This document shows positions 53,805 to 61,603 of a stretch of 64,000 nt of DNA, in pieces. Source of the DNA: Cytophagales bacterium (GTDB lineage: Bacteria > Bacteroidota > Bacteroidia > Cytophagales > Cyclobacteriaceae); the NCBI GenBank assembly GCA_013298505.1, contig JAAFHY010000004.1, positions 38,421 to 102,420 on the forward strand, in the 5' to 3' direction. Position numbers and translations under genes: made by a program. The notes below the pieces were generated by a model. That model was not told the DNA's origin. It worked only from the letters and a program-made list of their open reading frames with translations, and did not search any database. Position 1 is the stretch's first letter. The number at the start of each line of letters is the position of its first letter.

Positions 53805-54422
53805 TTAAACTAAATTATTCGCGTAAGCATATTTTACCAACCCGACTAAATTAGTCGCCCCCGTCTTCTTAAGAATATTTTTGCGGTGTGTTTCAACAGT
53901 GCGCTCGCTGATAAATAAGATTTCTGCAATTTGTCTGCTGTTAAATTCTTTGGTCACCAACTTCAGCACTTCAACTTCGCGCGTAGTCAATGCACCTCGC
54001 TCTTCTTCTTCGGGTAGGTTAATTAATAGTTCGGCTACTTCATCACTTAAAAAGCGTTTGCCTTCCATTACTTTTCCAAGTGCATCGGTCAAATTTTTGT
54101 AGGTATCTTTTTTTAAGATGTAGCCATTAACACCAGATCGCAACAGCTCTTTTACAACCGCTGGATCATCGTGCATGCTTAATACAATAATTTTTAAATC
54201 AGGCTGCGCTAGGCGAGCTGCCTTTACCAACTCTAAGCCCGTAATACCTGGCATTTCATAATCAGTAATCAGTAAATCAAAATCAGTTGATTTGATTAGC
54301 TCTAGTGCGGCAAGTCCCGATGTAGCAATATGAGTAACCTCAAACGGATCGCGAATAAGATTTCTCATTCCCTCCAGTAGAATGGGATGATCATCAACCA
54401 GCAAGACGGAATGTTTTTCCAT
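53805..54422 (-). CDS. NarL/FixJ-type response regulator
   Basis: A 205-residue regulator with receiver domain (LLVDDHPILLEGM, phospho-Asp 54 in LLITDYEMPGITGLE) and a LuxR-type DNA-binding domain (LTTREVEVLKLVTKEFNSRQ, IAEILFISERTVETHRKNIL). I use ATG 54422; the track start at 54464 adds 14 residues outside the fold. It follows the TPR kinase gene by about 100 bases in the same direction and is its likely partner. Probable DNA targets are the 7-2-7 inverted sites at 56549-56564 and 59641-59656. Confidence 0.94.
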   Translation of the reverse strand: MEKHSVLLVDDHPILLEGMRNLIRDPFEVTHIATSGLAALELIKSTDFDLLITDYEMPGITGLELVKAARLAQPDLKIIVLSMHDDPAVVKELLRSGVNGYILKKDTYKNLTDALGKVMEGKRFLSDEVAELLINLPEEEERGALTTREVEVLKLVTKEFNSRQIAEILFISERTVETHRKNILKKTGATNLVGLVKYAYANNLV

Positions 54423-54521
54423 GCTGCGTAAAATTCGACCAAATGACTTACTTAACCAAATCACAATGTGGAGATTTAATACTGCAAAGCAACACAGCGG
54501 CTACGCAAATCAAAATACCGA

Positions 54522-56525
54522 TCACTCGGTATTTTGCACCTTTTCAGTGGCTGGATTTGTTGCCATGGCTGGCACCTGAATGGTGATTGTGTTATTCTTT
54601 CTTCCCGTCACCACATCAAAGTCAATAAACCCCTTCATTAAGTTAGTGCGGGTTTGAATGGTGCGCCAACCATTGCTCGAAGTGTTGTTTTGAAATTTTG
54701 CGAGGTCATAACCAATTCCATTATCTTCTAGGGTAAGAATTACTTCCTTCTCGTGGCCAGTGAACGAAATCGCTAATTCGGTTGCATCGCTGTGTTTAAG
54801 TATGTTTGAAATTAACTCTTGTATAATTCGGTAGATTGAAATCTCAACCACGTTTGAAAAACGAGTAGGCACATCGTGCACCGAGAGGGTGGCTTGTAGT
54901 TGCGATGCTTTGTTTACTCTTCGAATAAGCTCACGCGTTGCAGGGATCAATCCTTCTTTTACCAATACAGGCGGCATAAGATTGAACGCAATGTTTCTGA
55001 TCTCTGACTGAATATCGTTTAGAAGTTGCTCAGAGTTCTCGACCAATGAAACAGTCTTTTCTTGGTCTTGTGTATTTTTGATTGACTGAACCGTAAGTTG
55101 CAACGCAGCTACCAACTGACCCATGCCATCGTGCAAGTCGGAAGCGAATCGTTTGCGTTCTTGTTCTTGCGATTCGATAACGGACGTAATTTGAGCCTCG
55201 CGAATTCGAATTTTCTGTTCGTTTAACACTACCTGTCGGTCACGCTCACTGCGCAGCCTCCAAACATAAAATAAGGCTATACCCAGCAAGAACAACGCCA
55301 GCACTCCGCCAATAAAAAAATAATTTCGCTCAATGGTGGCAGCCTTCAGATTATTGTCTTTACTTAAATCAGAAATTTGGCGGTCTTTCTTCTCGGTATC
55401 GTACTTGGTTTGCAGTTCGAGCAGTTGCTTTGATTTCTGCTGCTGAAACAAAGAATCTTTTACAGCGCTATACTCAATATGCTCTTTATACGCACCTCGA
55501 AAGTCTGCCGCTTGTGCTTTGCTTTCAGCAAGGGCTTCATGCGCTTGCATGATTTGCTCCATCGCCTTTATACTGGTAGCGATATTTAGAGCCTGCTCAC
55601 CGTAGGCAATCGCCTCAGTCTTGTTTCCTTGCTTTGCTTCCAAGCGAGCTAATTGCGAAAGCGTAAATGATAATTCTTTTTTATTGTTGTAGTCTTCATG
55701 CAATTTTTTTGCTTTGGCAAAGTAAAATTTCGCTTTTTCGTTTTGCCCTGACTTTGCATAGGCGATAGCCGCATTGCTCAAGGTAGTAGGCAAAAACTGC
55801 CGCACATTTTGCGCTTCAAACTCTTCACTTGCCAGCAGTGAATAGTATATGGCGCTGTCGTACCGGGTGAGGCTCAGATAAACAGCTCCCAAATTAGAGT
55901 GGCACGCAGCTTGCCCAAACTTGTTTCCCAACTTTTGATAGATGGTCATGGCTTGGCGGTAATAGCTGATGACTTTTTCATACTCCTTTTGGGCGCGAAG
56001 GACGATACCAATGTTGGTCAGCACCATCGCGATTTTACTTTCATCTTGTAAGCCTTCGTAAATTTTACGTGCATCAAAGTAGTGGCTTAGGGCTTTTTCA
56101 TAGTCACCTCGTTCATCATGGATGATTCCAAGTGTATTAAGTGTGTTTGCAATTTTAGATGAGTCACCCAGCTTTTTTCGTAGGGCAAGCGCCTGCGACT
56201 CGTATATGAGCGCTTCGTCATAATTTCCCTGCGCCTCGTATGTTACACCAATATCATTGAGTGCCTCAGCTTCCAGGTCTTCGGATTTTTCCTTCTTCGC
56301 TAGGTCTAACGCTATCAATCCGTACATGCGAGCTGAGTCGGCATTGGTAAAGCGATACTCCCAACATATTTCCAATAGCGTAGTAACCCTCGCAATACCT
56401 TCGGTCTTTTGCAGGACGCCTTTCAAGCTATCTAGATTTTTTGTTTGGGATAAAACCACAGAGGGTTGAACTCCGAATAGAAACGCAATAAAAGTGACGG
56501 ATGGAATAAGAAATCGTCTAGGCAT
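54522..56525 (-). CDS. TPR-containing histidine kinase (HisKA_3)
   Basis: A 667-residue sensor kinase with a signal peptide (RRFLIPSVTFIAFLFGV), about seven TPR repeats (40-350, for example ALNDIGVTYEAQGNYDEALI), one membrane helix (about 400-420) and a NarL-partner kinase core: HisKA_3 RKRFASDLHDGMGQL (His near 465) and HATPase (ILTLEDNGIGYDL). The TPR array is outside the membrane and may sense a protein or wall-related ligand. The start is ATG 56525. It is divergent from a run of secreted-protein genes, and an element with a NarL-type site lies 19 bases upstream. Confidence 0.92.
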   Translation of the reverse strand: MPRRFLIPSVTFIAFLFGVQPSVVLSQTKNLDSLKGVLQKTEGIARVTTLLEICWEYRFTNADSARMYGLIALDLAKKEKSEDLEAEALNDIGVTYEAQGNYDEALIYESQALALRKKLGDSSKIANTLNTLGIIHDERGDYEKALSHYFDARKIYEGLQDESKIAMVLTNIGIVLRAQKEYEKVISYYRQAMTIYQKLGNKFGQAACHSNLGAVYLSLTRYDSAIYYSLLASEEFEAQNVRQFLPTTLSNAAIAYAKSGQNEKAKFYFAKAKKLHEDYNNKKELSFTLSQLARLEAKQGNKTEAIAYGEQALNIATSIKAMEQIMQAHEALAESKAQAADFRGAYKEHIEYSAVKDSLFQQQKSKQLLELQTKYDTEKKDRQISDLSKDNNLKAATIERNYFFIGGVLALFLLGIALFYVWRLRSERDRQVVLNEQKIRIREAQITSVIESQEQERKRFASDLHDGMGQLVAALQLTVQSIKNTQDQEKTVSLVENSEQLLNDIQSEIRNIAFNLMPPVLVKEGLIPATRELIRRVNKASQLQATLSVHDVPTRFSNVVEISIYRIIQELISNILKHSDATELAISFTGHEKEVILTLEDNGIGYDLAKFQNNTSSNGWRTIQTRTNLMKGFIDFDVVTGRKNNTITIQVPAMATNPATEKVQNTE

Positions 56526-56543
56526 CAATAACAAATTTTATAG

Positions 56544-56592
56544 TCATATACCTACTATTGGGTATATGCAAATTACCAATTTCCACGGATTG
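56544..56592. promoter_or_regulatory. 49-bp element, copy 1, with NarL-type 7-2-7 site
   Basis: This stretch matches 59636-59684 over 49 bases with no gap and few mismatches. It holds TACCTAC-TA-TTGGGTA (56549-56564), an inverted pair of 7-mers two bases apart, the layout of NarL binding sites. Each heptamer differs from TACYYMT by one base. It lies between the TPR kinase and the first secreted gene, so it may control both. Confidence 0.6.
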
Positions 56593-56635
56593 CTAAAGAG
56601 GGTTTTGGCCGGTTTCTTTGTAACGCAAATATACG

Positions 56636-56670
56636 ATGTATAAGACGAGCCAAGGGAGTGTCTTATACAT
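56636..56670. promoter_or_regulatory. Perfect 11-bp inverted repeat
   Basis: ATGTATAAGAC (56636-56646) and GTCTTATACAT (56660-56670) pair exactly, with 13 bases between. It is in the intergenic region 87-121 bases before the secreted gene at 56757. No T-run follows, so an operator is more likely than a terminator. Confidence 0.5.
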
Positions 56671-56756
56671 TCAAAAGATTGTGATGGCTGGTTGGGATGG
56701 CAGATTCCCGAACCGCTTTAGTTTGAATACCCCGCGGTAAAAATTAAAATTAACCC

Positions 56757-58511
56757 ATGAAACAAAAAACAAAAAATTGCTTGCTGAAACTGAGTGTTCT
56801 TTTTTTTGCTTTCACCATTGCCACAACATCGCTGGCACAAGAAAAAAAGAAAAAGAAGGGCTTCAACCTTGGTGAGCGCATTGGCAAACTGACGGGCGAT
56901 ATTCTCACTTCCAAAACTGCAGATCTCAAACTTACAGTAGCTAAACCCACGTACTATTGTGGCGTTTTTCCAATGAGTGTGGGCACTACCGAATCTAAAT
57001 TAATGCCAGCTACTACCGTGGAAGGCGACCATGTGGTAAGCATCTCCTTCTTTAAGAACCAAGGAGCAGGTGTGTATAAGATTGAAGGAGATGTGAAACT
57101 CAACGGAGAGCCGATGAAATACTTGGGCCTGGGTTCTTACATGTCGAACTCGTCTATTCCGTATGCCAATAGCCCCATAATTGAAATTACAACCAAGACA
57201 GGCGATAAGGCTTCCTTTGTGCTTGACGCGATTCCGGAAATAAAATTACTGTCGGTGAACGGCCAGAGTTCATTGCCGTTGGTAGATGTTTCAGAAGACT
57301 TGGAAATAGAAATTTTCAATCCTGCTGGAGCCGAAAAAACACGTATAAAGGTTTCGTTGCTTACCGATGTAATGGGTGTACGCGCGTTTAATCACTTCGC
57401 AGATTTTGAAAGCGGCCCTGCTGGCGCACGAAAAATAAAAATCCCAAAGGCTTCGCTGGCTAACCCCGAGACGGCAGGAAAACTAAATGCAGGTAATTTC
57501 AATAAAGGCGAGAATTTATTGTTGGTGGAGCGCATGCTGGTTACTGAAAATGATAAACTTTCTTCCGCCCAGCAGAAAGGCAATATTCATTCGGCAGAAT
57601 TGCGGAGCGTTTCGTGCGCCTCCATGCCAGTAATTGTAAAAGGTAAACAGGAAGGAGGGCTAAATGTAGGGCTCATGATTACTGGGTATGCACCCAACAC
57701 CAATCTTGGTTTTGACTTTCAAAAGCCCAATGCCGCTACAGGTATGCCGCTTTCCATGGCATCGAAGGTTGGTCTCACCTCATTAATGTTGGATGGCCGC
57801 ACGTTCAAAGAAGAATCTTTTTCAAGCTCATCCAGCTCTACGATAGGTGGCACCACCTACACGCGGACTACCACTACTACTTATACGTATCAGTTTCCAC
57901 AGTTGCCCACCGAACATTGGCAATATGTATTGGATGTTCTCTACACCGAGATGGCGAAGCTTTTTCGTGAAAAGCATAAAATTGACTTTGTGCCTGTGGA
58001 AAAGGTAACGGGCACCACCCAATATCAAACATTGTTTCCGGCAGAAGCGGCTAATACAAAAAGTGCCATACAAACTACTTACAAGAACACGTTGCGTTCG
58101 AGCCCCGAAAAACTATCCGAAGTATTCGGTTCAATTTCATCCAATCAAACTTCTGACGTGCCCATTGTAAATATGATGAAGGAAGCCGATGTAGACGGTT
58201 TGATAAGCATTACGTTGAAAATGACTGTGGGAGCCGATAAGAATGACAAAGTAATTCTGAGCCCACAGTTGCATTTCAGCATGGCAGGTCGCGATGAAAA
58301 CAATGCAAATAAACAAGGCACCTATGTGGTTGGGTTGATTGGCGGAGCGGGTGTTCCTTTCAATAGCGATGCTGTAAAAAATGATAAGCGTGCGCTGGTA
58401 GAAGCATGTAGTATTCCGCAATTGATAAAAGCGCTAGACTATGCGCTGACAACAACCAAAGCGAAAGAGATTGAGTTTGGGTATGATGCTATTTGGAGTA
58501 TTGGGAAGTAA
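56757..58511 (+). CDS. Secreted protein of unknown function, 584 residues
   Basis: A signal peptide (LSVLFFAFTIATTSLAQ) is followed by a lysine patch (EKKKKKGFNLGERIGKLTG) and a mature protein without membrane segments. A serine/threonine-rich stretch lies near 355-380 (SFSSSSSSTIGG, TYTRTTTTTYTYQ). The C-terminal part from about 390 has LDVLYTEMAKLFREKHKIDF, ADVDGLISITLKMTVGAD and VVGLIGGAGVPF, a layout that loosely parallels the later protein at 59797. It is the first gene facing the TPR kinase. I recognise no named domain. Confidence 0.83.
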   Translation: MKQKTKNCLLKLSVLFFAFTIATTSLAQEKKKKKGFNLGERIGKLTGDILTSKTADLKLTVAKPTYYCGVFPMSVGTTESKLMPATTVEGDHVVSISFFKNQGAGVYKIEGDVKLNGEPMKYLGLGSYMSNSSIPYANSPIIEITTKTGDKASFVLDAIPEIKLLSVNGQSSLPLVDVSEDLEIEIFNPAGAEKTRIKVSLLTDVMGVRAFNHFADFESGPAGARKIKIPKASLANPETAGKLNAGNFNKGENLLLVERMLVTENDKLSSAQQKGNIHSAELRSVSCASMPVIVKGKQEGGLNVGLMITGYAPNTNLGFDFQKPNAATGMPLSMASKVGLTSLMLDGRTFKEESFSSSSSSTIGGTTYTRTTTTTYTYQFPQLPTEHWQYVLDVLYTEMAKLFREKHKIDFVPVEKVTGTTQYQTLFPAEAANTKSAIQTTYKNTLRSSPEKLSEVFGSISSNQTSDVPIVNMMKEADVDGLISITLKMTVGADKNDKVILSPQLHFSMAGRDENNANKQGTYVVGLIGGAGVPFNSDAVKNDKRALVEACSIPQLIKALDYALTTTKAKEIEFGYDAIWSIGK

Positions 58512-58556
58512 AAAGACGGAATAGCGCAACTGTATTTGAAAACTTAAAAAGACAAA

Positions 58557-59033
58557 ATGATGAAATCAACTATCCTACAATCTTCTCTACTTGCTTTGCT
58601 CTTCCTTATAGGCTGCGCCAAAGAAGAAAAATTTTCGTGTAACCTAGATGGGCAGTATACTTTAAATGGCAACCCATTTTGTGCGGATGCCTGGGTAAAG
58701 AGACATGCAATACAGGAGACCGGCACGCTCTCCGAAGACCTGACGCTTCTATTGGGGGATTTTCAACTAACTGTAACCATGTCAAAAGAAATTTTTCAGG
58801 TGGGAAAGGCTTACACTAATTTGATGATGGCCAGGCCCCAAACACCCGCGGCATGGGTTAATTCCACTTCATTAGACTTACAAGGCATAGACCTATTTTC
58901 CGTAACCTTCACCAAGCTTGACAGGGCGAACAAAATCATGTCAGGAACATTCACACTGGACACCAAGCATATAGTGGCAGGTAAAGCCGAGTCTTTGGTT
59001 AGCAGTGGTTCATTTACAGATGTAGCTTATTAA
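58557..59033 (+). CDS. Small lipoprotein of unknown function
   Basis: A 158-residue predicted lipoprotein (LLALLFLIGC, cysteine 20). The mature protein looks beta-rich (DLTLLLGDFQLTVTMSKEIF, KIMSGTFTLDTKHIVAGKAE), and a cysteine pair (SCNLDGQY, FCADAW) could form a disulfide. It starts 45 bases after the previous secreted protein and is likely part of that transcript. No family recognised. Confidence 0.75.
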   Translation: MMKSTILQSSLLALLFLIGCAKEEKFSCNLDGQYTLNGNPFCADAWVKRHAIQETGTLSEDLTLLLGDFQLTVTMSKEIFQVGKAYTNLMMARPQTPAAWVNSTSLDLQGIDLFSVTFTKLDRANKIMSGTFTLDTKHIVAGKAESLVSSGSFTDVAY

Positions 59034-59096
59034 GTTCATCCAACTCAACGACATAACCTAGATAAACAAAGATTTTTAACTAATAACTACTGAAAA

Positions 59097-59519
59097 ATGA
59101 AAAAGAGCACGATTATCCTATCCAGTATTGTCCTTAGCCTTGCCTTTTCTGTATGCCGGGGTCAAGCACTTGTACTCCCCACCGAGGCCGATGTTTGGGG
59201 TAGCCCACAAACCATTACTTTGAATGGCGGCAGCCTTCAGTTGCGCACCAAGTTTATCAAGCACTTTGGCACCACCTGTATTTTCAACATTGAGTTTACC
59301 AACACGGGCAATGTGGCTCTTAAAGAGGAAGCACAACTGACCAAGCCAGGGTCGCCCATCTATACTCATTGGTCAACCTCCATAAAGTTGAAACCGGGCG
59401 AGATTGCAGTATTCGAAATGGAGCGGAGAGAGTGTTCCCCGATTTTCGGAAAGAAGAAACAGAAGAATATCAGTAAATGCGCGGAATGCAATCCAACCAT
59501 ATCGTTCCTCAAAAAATGA
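59097..59519 (+). CDS. Secreted protein, 140 residues
   Basis: Signal peptide MKKSTIILSSIVLSLAFSV followed by a beta-rich domain with RTKFIKHFGTTCIFNIEFTN and LKPGEIAVFEMERRECSPIF, and a basic, cysteine-bearing tail (KKKQKNISKCAECNP). It may be an Ig-like or immunoglobulin-fold domain; I can not name it. It follows the small lipoprotein by 63 bases on the same strand and belongs to the same group of exported proteins. Confidence 0.75.
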   Translation: MKKSTIILSSIVLSLAFSVCRGQALVLPTEADVWGSPQTITLNGGSLQLRTKFIKHFGTTCIFNIEFTNTGNVALKEEAQLTKPGSPIYTHWSTSIKLKPGEIAVFEMERRECSPIFGKKKQKNISKCAECNPTISFLKK

Positions 59520-59635
59520 AGTCAGTCAGTTACCAGATGGATAAATCAAACTTATGGTTTTGAACCCTTATTACAACCCGCATTGGCATTTCGAGTCTAG
59601 TGTTTTCTTCCACCTCGAACAGTTCTTAGATAATC

Positions 59636-59684
59636 TCATATACCTACCGTTAGGTATGGCCAAATTACCAAAATCCGCGGATTG
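59636..59684. promoter_or_regulatory. 49-bp element, copy 2, with NarL-type 7-2-7 site
   Basis: The second copy of the element at 56544-56592, in the same orientation. It holds TACCTAC-CG-TTAGGTA (59641-59656), a nearly perfect inverted 7-mer pair, then caaattaccaa and cggattg that are shared with copy 1. It lies 113 bases before the ATG of the secreted protein at 59797 and is likely the control site of that gene. Confidence 0.6.
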
Positions 59685-59796
59685 ATATAAGATATAGAAC
59701 GCTCTTCCTTTGATGAACAGAAATAAGGAGACCAGCAACCTTGCAAACGGGGCGAAACCGAAAAGCCATACGAGTAGGATTACAAACACTATCATC

Positions 59797-60756
59797 ATGA
59801 AACACCTAACTCTTATCACTGTACTTGCCTTCGCCTCGCAGCTTTCATTTGCTCAAAGCGATGGAGAGAAATTTCAGATCCTGTCCAAGTCAAAAATTAT
59901 TTCCAAGCTCTCTAAACTTGCCCTAGCTCAAATCACAGTCAACTACAAAATCACGACCGAAGAACGGGTCATCGGGAAAGAAAAGCGCTCAGGGTCGGTA
60001 GCGGGTGCCAAAATTACCGCGTACCTCCAAACTACCGATGGTGATTTAACGGAGAGCGACTTACAAGAAGTGACCGACTATTTTTATTCCTATTTCCAAA
60101 AAAAGCTAAAGGCAAGTGGTATTGATACTGTTGGTTGGAGCAGAATAGCTGCCACAGATTTCTATAAAAGTAACCAAGTGGACGAAGAAAAGGGAGGTGG
60201 CGAACGCGCAGGGAATGTTTGGGTAACCCGTAGCGCCCGCAATGGAAATACAATCTATGGAGGAGGACTGACCCCCGTTTTTCCCTTCTTAAAGCTGAAA
60301 AGGGCAAGTAAATTTAGTGATGAAATTGGTGCGCCTGCGGCTTCCTTTCTTATAACGGTGGATTTCGCTGATGTGATGGTAAACGTAGACATCAAAACAG
60401 GTACTTCAGAGGGTCTTTACTACACTAATAAAACGAAGATTACTAAATTCAAATCGGCCGTAAGGCCAGAAGTGAAAGTAGTGGCTACAAATCAGTTTTC
60501 ACTTTTTTGGAATGACAAAATGCATCAAGAAAATTTGCTTTTGAAGGAAGACTTAGCATCCGTTGGGGGTTATTCGGATAACATTAGTGAAGATGCATCG
60601 AAGGCAAGGTCGGGCTTGGCCAAGGCATTTGCTTTTAGAAAAGAAATGGCACCGGTAGTGATTGAGACAACCCGCGAAAAATATAAAACTGCTGCCAAGA
60701 AAGCGTTGGAGAAATATGCCGATGCATTTGTGGAAAAGGCAAAGGAAGGAAAATAA
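59797..60756 (+). CDS. Secreted protein of unknown function, 319 residues
   Basis: Signal peptide MKHLTLITVLAFASQLSFAQ, then SLALAQITVNYKI-like strand and helix pairs. TDYFYSYFQKKLKASGIDTV and RIAATDFYKSNQ parallel LDVLYTEMAKLFREKHKIDF and following residues of the 584-residue neighbour, so the two may share a fold. The last 50 residues are helical and basic. I use ATG 59797; the track start at 59710 adds 29 residues without a signal. It has its own copy of the 49-bp element. Function unknown. Confidence 0.82.
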   Translation: MKHLTLITVLAFASQLSFAQSDGEKFQILSKSKIISKLSKLALAQITVNYKITTEERVIGKEKRSGSVAGAKITAYLQTTDGDLTESDLQEVTDYFYSYFQKKLKASGIDTVGWSRIAATDFYKSNQVDEEKGGGERAGNVWVTRSARNGNTIYGGGLTPVFPFLKLKRASKFSDEIGAPAASFLITVDFADVMVNVDIKTGTSEGLYYTNKTKITKFKSAVRPEVKVVATNQFSLFWNDKMHQENLLLKEDLASVGGYSDNISEDASKARSGLAKAFAFRKEMAPVVIETTREKYKTAAKKALEKYADAFVEKAKEGK

Positions 60757-60841: not shown

Positions 60842-61603
60842 ATGAAATCAATATTATTAATTGCCTTGGTGGCAATATCCGGGGTGTTGAATGGTCAGTC
60901 TTTTTTAGATATGAAAGACAAGAAAGGCCGCTCGCTCTATGAAGACAATTGGTTTAACTTGATGATCCGCTATACCCATGTTACTGGCAAAGGCAATGAA
61001 AGTTTTGGTGGCTTTACAGGCAATGTTTCCATACGCAGTGCCAAAGCAGGCAAAGGCGAAATTAGTGTAAACTATGAAAACGTTACACTCGGTGATTTTT
61101 TTTGGAAGCTCGCCAACCTAAAACAAAGTCAAAAATTAAACCAGGCTTTTGGTGCTGGATTTTTAGGTTGGGTGCAAGGGTATTACAATGTGGTAGCCAC
61201 CGATAAATTGATCATCGCGCCCGGTGCAAGCCTTGGCGACTATATTTTTGGATCAGAAATCACTACGCCAGTACCTCCAAATTTACTTTCGAATGAGCCT
61301 TTCGGTTATTACTTTACAGTGGGGCCATCCATAAAAGCCAGTTACCTGATCAACGATAGTTTTTGGGTAGATGGTATTTTTACTGCAGATATTCCGTTTG
61401 CCAAACTAAACAAAGGCACTGGAGCCAATTATGTAAGTGAAGAAGGTTATCCAAACCCTTGGTTTATTAACATTACGGGTACGATTTACCACAAGTCAAA
61501 ATTATTCTTGAGTGTTAGGGTTAATCAAGCTATAGATCGTGGGGCGAATAATGGTAGTGCGAGTCGTTTAGATATTTCACTTGGCTATCAGATATTACAT
61601 TGA
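60842..61603 (+). CDS. Secreted beta-rich protein, 253 residues
   Basis: Signal peptide SILLIALVAISGVLNGQ is followed by strand-rich sequence with aromatic and glycine content (SFGGFTGNVSIRSAKAGKGE, FGYYFTVGPSIKASYLINDS, FWVDGIFTADIPFAKLN) ending RLDISLGYQILH. The alternation and the final aromatic-hydrophobic strand suggest a small outer-membrane barrel, an inference. It lies 85 bases behind the previous gene and is probably the last gene of the group. Confidence 0.78.
   Translation: MKSILLIALVAISGVLNGQSFLDMKDKKGRSLYEDNWFNLMIRYTHVTGKGNESFGGFTGNVSIRSAKAGKGEISVNYENVTLGDFFWKLANLKQSQKLNQAFGAGFLGWVQGYYNVVATDKLIIAPGASLGDYIFGSEITTPVPPNLLSNEPFGYYFTVGPSIKASYLINDSFWVDGIFTADIPFAKLNKGTGANYVSEEGYPNPWFINITGTIYHKSKLFLSVRVNQAIDRGANNGSASRLDISLGYQILH

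What the first reader, a model, noticed from the sequence alone, without database searches (positions are those of the whole stretch)
56544..59684. A 49-bp element with NarL-like 7-2-7 sites occurs twice beside the TPR kinase / NarL regulator
56544-56592 and 59636-59684 align without gaps and share 38 to 40 of 49 bases. Both centre on TACCTAC-NN-TTRGGTA, an inverted pair of heptamers with a two-base gap, the arrangement recognised by NarL-type proteins. The adjacent regulator gene at 53805-54422 has that type of DNA-binding domain. One copy faces the kinase and the 584-residue secreted protein, the other precedes the 319-residue secreted protein, so this looks like a small self-controlled regulon.
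Basis: partly seen in the sequence, partly recalled or inferred. Interest (0 to 1): 0.75.

Follow-up and report, generated by a model that had tools for sequence, protein, structure and literature searches.

The report
Conserved switch site controlling secreted-protein genes
Two copies of a short DNA switch, very probably read by the neighbouring sensor-kinase/regulator pair, sit in front of secreted-protein genes; the same switch is kept in related bacteria while the kinase's sensing part and the genes behind the switch have been exchanged.

Summary
In detail: 56544-56592 and 59636-59684 share 40 of 49 bases, each with a perfect TACCTAC-NN-TTRGGTA, the only exact copies in the 3.96 Mb genome. 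In 63 congeneric genomes the extended element occurs essentially only where the regulator has an ortholog, always beside the kinase start. Twelve aligned copies show a promoter: distal 7-2-7 site (centre -68.5), degenerate proximal 7-2-7 site (-43.5), TTG, exactly 20 bp, Bacteroidota-type -7 box (TTYCTTTG). This is a small autoregulated, NarL-type regulon, probably activated; a candidate further target is an outer-membrane-protein/caspase operon elsewhere. The genes behind the promoter differ between species, and the window's kinase is recombinant (TPR sensor from one lineage, kinase core and regulator from another), so the two copies are probably different lineage versions, not an in-place duplication. 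Binding, start sites and direction of control are inferred, not shown.

The parts
53805..54464 (-). NarL/FixJ-type response regulator (receiver + GerE/LuxR HTH); GTG start at 54464 more likely than ATG at 54422
   Evidence: Pfam Response_reg 2.4e-25 and GerE 4.4e-18; the 14 codons upstream of the ATG are conserved (pattern xxWxxxxFxRIL) in orthologs
54485..54492 (-). Predicted -7 box of the regulator promoter, TTGCTTTG
   Evidence: TTnnTTTG-like box (GTGATTTG in one) exactly 23 bp downstream of the 7-2-7 site in 11/11 orthologs
54516..54531 (-). Third 7-2-7 site TACCGAG-TG-ATCGGTA, over the kinase stop codon, centre -43.5 from the predicted regulator start site
   Evidence: conserved in 11/11 orthologs; only zero-mismatch match of site + N23 + -7 in this genome; top weight-matrix hit in the window (part of the training set)
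54522..56525 (-). TPR-sensor histidine kinase (HisKA_3 + HATPase_c); chimeric: TPR sensor of G010/G057 type, kinase core of G042/G066 type
   Evidence: Pfam; identity profile; domain trees and AU tests
56549..56564 (.). Copy 1, distal 7-2-7 site TACCTAC-TA-TTGGGTA, centre -68.5 from the predicted S584 start site and 24 bp upstream of the kinase ATG
56568..56575 (-). TAATTTGC on the kinase strand, candidate -7 box of the kinase gene (SM5-like TAnnTTGY); speculative
   Evidence: CAAAT invariant in 12/12 copies; TAnnTTGY box of F. psychrophilum in PMC9723704
56574..56589 (+). Copy 1, proximal degenerate 7-2-7 site TACCAAT-TT-CCACGGA, centre -43.5
   Evidence: second-best weight-matrix hit at this register in 12/12 promoters; the equivalent site is retrieved by the regulator-promoter pattern with 1 mismatch in 6 other genomes
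56590..56592 (+). Predicted -33 element TTG, copy 1
   Evidence: TTG in 11/12 (TTT in one), exactly 20 bp before the -7 box in 12/12
56613..56620 (+). Predicted -7 box TTTCTTTG, copy 1 (start site ~56625)
   Evidence: conserved CTTTG core and N20 spacing in 12/12; Bacteroidota TAnnTTTG consensus
56757..58511 (+). S584 secreted protein, no Pfam family; 95% identical in G010, behind the same promoter
59641..59656 (.). Copy 2, distal 7-2-7 site TACCTAC-CG-TTAGGTA
   Evidence: element nearest to that of G057 (41/44), not to copy 1 (35/44)
59666..59681 (+). Copy 2, proximal degenerate 7-2-7 site TACCAAA-AT-CCGCGGA
59682..59684 (+). Predicted -33 element TTG, copy 2
59705..59712 (+). Predicted -7 box TTCCTTTG, copy 2 (start site ~59717)
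59797..60756 (+). S319 secreted protein; homologs (43-46% identical) in G054, G056 and G060 lie directly opposite the kinase, behind this same promoter

Best explanation
The 49-bp element is the operator-plus-promoter core of a small autoregulated regulon of the adjacent TPR-kinase/NarL-type regulator. Shown by sequence: in the secreted-gene direction each copy has a strong 7-2-7 site, 25 bp further on (centre to centre) a degenerate 7-2-7 site, then TTG-N20-TTYCTTTG; the regulator gene has one 7-2-7 site at the same distance (23 bp) from its own -7 box. Inferred: the TPR sensor perceives a periplasmic signal and the kinase phosphorylates the regulator; the regulator binds as dimers at -68.5 and -43.5 and recruits RNA polymerase to weak promoters (-7 boxes lack the consensus A), switching on the secreted-protein genes (S584, S319) and its own gene. 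The kinase is divergently transcribed from the same element, possibly from a -7 box inside it whose start site falls in the distal operator, so regulator binding may limit kinase expression. Shown across species: the operator stays, while the gene behind it is exchanged (S584, S319-like, or a 536-aa protein followed by further secreted proteins and a CHAT protein), and the TPR sensor is exchanged relative to the kinase core and regulator.
For: Only 2 exact copies in 3.96 Mb. Extended pattern in 63 congeneric genomes: clean hits in the 10 regulator-ortholog genomes with assembled upstream regions, plus G044 (kinase relative, 73% complete assembly), control 0; Fisher p ~9e-10. Element columns average 1.5-2.0 bits against 0.3-0.4 in spacer and flanks. 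N20 exact in 12/12; N23 exact in 11/11 at the regulator promoter. The pattern defined on the regulator promoter retrieves the proximal site of the secreted-gene promoter in 6 genomes with 1 mismatch. A matrix from regulator sites finds copies 1 and 2 as its next-best hits in the window and the proximal site as second-best hit at the same register in 12/12. GerE domain. E. coli NarL activates from 7-2-7 sites at -44.5 and -77.5, and also from -67.5 (PMC7419079). Chimeric kinase: sensor clade with G010/G057 (99/99), core+regulator clade with G042/G011/G066 (100/99), AU p 0.033 and 0.0005 for the alternatives.
Against: No binding, start-site or expression data. The 12 copies are related by descent, so 12/12 counts are not 12 independent events. 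The recognition helix is near-identical in the paralog (SERTVETHRKNI), and the paralogous system in the same genome has a similar site 23 bp before CATCTTTG, so another regulator could also use these sites. G045 and G072 carry a similar site before the outer-membrane gene without a detected close regulator ortholog. The proximal site is degenerate (GGGA/CGGA for GGTA) and may be mainly promoter sequence. The -7 boxes deviate from TAnnTTTG.
Confidence: 0.82

Rival explanations
1. The sites are real NarL-type operators but are read mainly, or jointly, by a paralogous NarL-family regulator (for example the 44%-identical one 60 kb away on the same contig).
For: The paralogous system has its own 7-2-7 site with N23 to a -7-like box just after its kinase gene in G000, G054 and L125; recognition helix nearly identical; G045 and G072 have the outer-membrane-gene site without a close ortholog.
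Against: The extended divergent element tracks the ortholog, not the paralog: regulators of 42-50% identity are widespread in the 63 genomes, the element is not. The sites lie beside the ortholog's own genes in every case.
Confidence: 0.12
2. The regulator acts as a repressor at these promoters (distal site over the kinase start region, proximal site over -33) rather than as an activator.
For: NarL can do both (PMC7419079); the proximal site abuts TTG and the distal site is 24 bp from the kinase ATG.
Against: -43.5 matches the activating NarL position at yeaR/ogt-type promoters; the -7 boxes are sub-consensus, as in activator-dependent promoters; two sites at -43.5 and -68.5 resemble ogt.
Confidence: 0.2
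3. The palindrome between kinase and regulator genes is an RNA hairpin/terminator, not an operator.
For: It is a near-perfect palindrome at the kinase stop codon with flanking A/T runs in some species.
Against: Inner positions are not kept paired (positions 5 and 12 mismatch in about half of the orthologs, e.g. TACCTAG-CA-GTCGGTA), while the TACC/GGTA ends and the exact 23 bp to a -7 box are kept; no long T run follows.
Confidence: 0.07
4. The two copies are a recent in-place duplication of a mobile or recombinogenic element without regulatory meaning.
For: Two copies within 3.1 kb.
Against: Copy 2 is closer to G057's element (41/44) than to copy 1 (35/44), and copy 1 is closest to G010's (41/44); strict promoter spacing; single copy in all other genomes.
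Confidence: 0.03

Closest known systems
Escherichia coli NarL 7-2-7 operators, especially the ogt promoter (sites at -44.5 and -77.5) and yeaR-yoaG (single site next to -35); PMC7419079
   Same: Inverted heptamers with a 2-bp gap; tandem sites upstream of one promoter and a single promoter-proximal site at another; GerE-type regulator; predicted centres -43.5 and -68.5 (E. coli NarL also works from -67.5)
   Different: Bacteroidota RNA polymerase and -33/-7 promoter; heptamer about TACCKAS rather than TACYYMT; kinase has a TPR periplasmic sensor; targets are secreted proteins; kinase and regulator genes lie beside the sites
Porphyromonas gingivalis FimS-FimR (TPR-sensor kinase + response regulator controlling fimbrial clusters); PMC11053733, PMC1974823
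   Same: Bacteroidota two-component pair with periplasmic TPR sensor; regulator activates genes for surface proteins
   Different: No operator motif is given in the passages read; targets are fimbriae; orthology not tested here
Bacteroidota sigma-A promoters (TTTG / TAnnTTTG; PMC7366714, PMC9723704)
   Same: TTG about 20 bp before a TTTG-ending -7 box
   Different: Second base of the -7 box is T instead of A in nearly all copies, as expected for an activator-dependent promoter

Membership tests
NarL-type 7-2-7 operator | Two inverted heptamers separated by 2 bp | tested here: met
   TACCKAS-like heptamers, inverted, in 12 divergent and 11 regulator promoters
NarL-type 7-2-7 operator | Agreement with NarL heptamer consensus TACYYMT (own knowledge; the term occurs in papers found) | tested here: met
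   TACCTAC agrees at 6 of 7; the last base is C/G/A, not T
NarL-type 7-2-7 operator | Bound by a phosphorylated NarL-family dimer | not testable with these tools
   adjacent regulator has receiver + GerE domains; binding not testable
E. coli ogt/yeaR-type NarL-activated promoter | 7-2-7 site next to the -35/-33 region, centre about -44.5 | tested here: met
   centre -43.5 at regulator promoters, fixed in 11/11; degenerate site at -43.5 in 12/12 divergent promoters, assuming the -7 box spans -12 to -5
E. coli ogt/yeaR-type NarL-activated promoter | Activation by the regulator | not testable with these tools
   no expression data
FimS/FimR family | Kinase with periplasmic TPR sensor | tested here: met
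   TPR repeats followed by HisKA_3 + HATPase_c; periplasmic location inferred from an N-terminal signal-like segment and a hydrophobic stretch before the kinase core
FimS/FimR family | Orthology to FimS/FimR | not tested
   no comparison with the P. gingivalis proteins was run
FimS/FimR family | Regulator directly activates surface-protein genes | not testable with these tools
   inferred from site positions only
Bacteroidota sigma-A promoter | TAnnTTTG -7 box | tested here: inconclusive
   TTYCTTTG / TTGCTTTG, 7 of 8 specified and free positions with the A missing; the outer-membrane-gene promoters have perfect TAGATTTG/TAGCTTTG

The most novel reading that the evidence does not exclude
The locus evolves by exchanging input and output around a fixed operator: a cassette of TPR sensor domain, divergent operator and secreted-protein gene moves by recombination onto a resident kinase core and regulator, which makes chimeric kinases; the displaced resident output gene keeps its own operator copy. 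This would explain why only this genome has two element copies.
Probability: 0.35. Interest if true: 0.68.

Novelty: new member of a known kind. Interest (0 to 1): 0.52.

Why it matters
NarL-type regulators, many with TPR-sensor kinases, are numerous in these Bacteroidota (dozens of regulator-like candidates per genome), and I found no described operator for such a pair in a limited literature search. This case gives a concrete operator, a fixed promoter geometry and a short target list that can be tested directly. The natural chimeric kinase and swapped targets offer a way to ask which sensor goes with which secreted protein. CHAT and caspase-fold (Peptidase_C14) proteins among the possible targets suggest that these systems may control secreted caspase-like proteins, whose role is unknown.

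Tried and rejected
Loose 16-mer scans are useless: at 3 mismatches the control exceeds the signal. Hits of the extended element outside the genus (391 genomes of the order) carry 1-2 mismatches; the best one (G416) lies inside a coding sequence, so I treat them as chance. AlphaFold models of S319 and S584 were worthless (mean pLDDT 30.5 and 33.1), so no fold search was made; an idea that their C-terminal parts share a CsgG/TolB-like fold is untested. Pfam finds nothing for S584, S319, the 253-aa or the 536-aa protein. The RNA-hairpin reading of the kinase-regulator palindrome was rejected because inner pairs are not kept. S319 homologs in G046, G005 and G055 have no 7-2-7-like site in the fetched DNA, so S319 is not bound to this operator everywhere. 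Association of the outer-membrane-gene site with the regulator is suggestive only: 3 of 4 genomes with the ortholog have it, 2 of 8 without.
Full report
OBSERVATION. Both stated copies exist and are 40/49 identical (81% over 52 bp). The 16-mer TACCTACNNTTRGGTA occurs exactly at 56549 and 59641 and nowhere else in the 3.96 Mb assembly. With 3 mismatches it is not above the reversed control. Copy 1 lies 24 bp upstream of the kinase ATG (56525) and 193 bp upstream of S584; copy 2 lies 141 bp upstream of S319.

SETTING. The regulator has receiver and GerE domains; the kinase has TPR repeats, HisKA_3 and HATPase_c; the secreted proteins have no Pfam family. Named genomes with kinase relatives are Cyclobacteriaceae/Flammeovirgaceae/Bacteroidetes MAGs.

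FOOTPRINT. Regulator orthologs (about 65-92% identity) occur in ten congeneric genomes besides the window's own. The sequence directly upstream of the kinase holds the element in every one where that region is assembled. A genus-wide search with the extended pattern TACCNANNNNTNGGTANNNNCAAATTACCAA (63 genomes) gave clean hits in the ortholog genomes plus G044, whose kinase sensor groups with that of G067; the control gave none. Remaining 2-mismatch hits are G052, G021 and G058; the G058 one sits 19 bp upstream of a kinase gene near a 58%-identical regulator. Only the window's genome has two copies. Co-occurrence with the ortholog: Fisher p ~9e-10. Across the order (391 genomes) no clean hit falls outside the genus.

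ANATOMY. Aligning 12 copies in the secreted-gene direction: positions 1-16 distal 7-2-7; 21-25 invariant CAAAT; 26-41 TACCAAA-NN-NNNSGGA; 42-44 TTG; exactly 20 variable bases; 65-72 TTYCTTTG. Mean information is 1.5-2.0 bits in the elements and 0.3-0.4 bits in spacer and flanks. Taking the Bacteroidota -7 box at -12 to -5 (PMC9723704), the 7-2-7 centres fall at -68.5 and -43.5. The -7 boxes have T where TAnnTTTG has A.

THIRD SITE. A palindrome over the kinase stop codon (54516-54531) is a 7-2-7 site ending exactly 23 bp before TTGCTTTG, in front of the regulator gene. The 23 bp is exact in 11/11 orthologs. The proximal site of the secreted-gene promoter ends at the same 23 bp from its -7 box. 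The pattern written from the regulator promoter, searched in 63 genomes, retrieved that proximal site with one mismatch in six genomes, and a weight matrix from regulator sites placed its second-best hit at this register in 12/12 promoters. Inner bases of the palindrome do not stay paired, which argues against an RNA hairpin.

KINASE PROMOTER. On the kinase strand the conserved block reads TAATTTGC. This fits the TAnnTTGY box described as SM5 in F. psychrophilum and would put the kinase start site inside the distal operator. Copy 2, which has no kinase next to it, is the only copy with the last base changed (G to C at position 20). This is one data point and stays a hypothesis.

OTHER TARGETS. 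In this genome a site TACCTATTCTTGGGTA-N23-TAGATTTG (G000:C1:263379) precedes an outer-membrane beta-barrel gene followed by a secreted WD40-Peptidase_C14 (caspase-fold) gene. The same pattern search had independently picked sites before homologs of this gene in G042, G045, G066 and G072; in G042 the caspase gene also follows. Because G045 and G072 lack a detected close regulator ortholog, and a paralogous kinase/regulator pair carries a similar site, I treat this operon as a candidate target only. In G055 the same architecture lies between another NarL-type regulator and a secreted 119-aa gene.

TURNOVER OF INPUT AND OUTPUT. The gene behind the promoter is S584 in the window and G010; S319-like in G054, G056 and G060; and a 536-aa family followed by further secreted proteins and a CHAT protein in G066, G067 and G057, with the same start of the first gene in G042 and G011. 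G010 and G057 have near-identical sensors but different output genes, and their sequences part at the element. The window kinase is a mosaic: residues about 40-360 (TPR sensor) are up to 100% identical to G010 per 40-residue block (90% overall) and 61% to G042; residues 520-600 are 80-88% to G042 and 45-68% to G010; the regulator is 92% to G042 and 71% to G010. Trees agree: sensor with G010/G057 (99/99), core+regulator with G042/G011/G066 (100/99); the alternative groupings are rejected (p-AU 0.033 and 0.0005). S584 and promoter copy 1 are about 93% identical to G010 at DNA level up to the distal site, where identity drops. Copy 1 is nearest to G010's element (41/44), copy 2 to G057's (41/44), and they share only 35/44 with each other. 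The simplest reading is that sensor, copy 1 and S584 came from a G010-like donor, while S319 with copy 2 was already there or came separately. The kinase signal-peptide region matches neither, so several breakpoints or fast change must be allowed.

MECHANISM. Most likely: the sensor activates the kinase, the phosphorylated regulator dimerises on the 7-2-7 sites and activates the secreted-gene promoters (two sites, ogt-like) and its own gene (one site, yeaR-like). E. coli NarL activates ogt from -44.5 and -77.5 and can work from -67.5 (PMC7419079). P. gingivalis FimS-FimR is a characterised Bacteroidota TPR-kinase pair that activates surface-protein genes (PMC11053733, PMC1974823). Shown here: sites, spacing, conservation, co-occurrence, recombination. 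Inferred: binding, activation, signal.

VERDICT. An ordinary kind of regulatory circuit, but well defined, with a promoter geometry not previously described for this group as far as a limited search could tell, and with an interesting history of exchange.

Noticed in passing
window 54422-54464: The regulator probably starts 14 codons upstream (GTG 54464): the extra residues (xxWxxxxFxRIL) are conserved in orthologs and leave a short ~16-nt leader from the predicted start site.
   Followed up: partly
G000:C1:263379-266000 (L008, L191): Site + N23 + perfect -7 box before an outer-membrane beta-barrel gene and a secreted WD40/Peptidase_C14 gene; homologous gene with the same kind of site in G042, G045, G066, G072.
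   Followed up: partly
L067:2887-9512, L072:4922-10806, L068:4743-10486: In relatives the operon behind the same promoter ends in a secreted TPR-CHAT (caspase-like) protein of about 960 aa.
   Followed up: no
window 60842-61603: The 253-aa protein after S319 is 46% identical to the second gene of the CHAT-type operon in G066 (L067:4635-5396), so it may be a remnant of an older operon at this locus.
   Followed up: no
window 58557-59033; L081:10701-11123: The 158-aa lipoprotein has a 28%-identical relative directly beside a 54%-identical regulator in G016, suggesting a recurrent association with this regulator family.
   Followed up: no
L198:3285-6465 (G000:C141:29-32.5 kb): A paralogous TPR-kinase/NarL-regulator pair in the same genome has its own 7-2-7 site 23 bp before CATCTTTG right after the kinase gene.
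   Followed up: partly
window 56440-56560 against L073: Kinase leader and signal-peptide region is unrelated to G010 although both sides (S584/promoter and TPR sensor) are about 90% identical.
   Followed up: no
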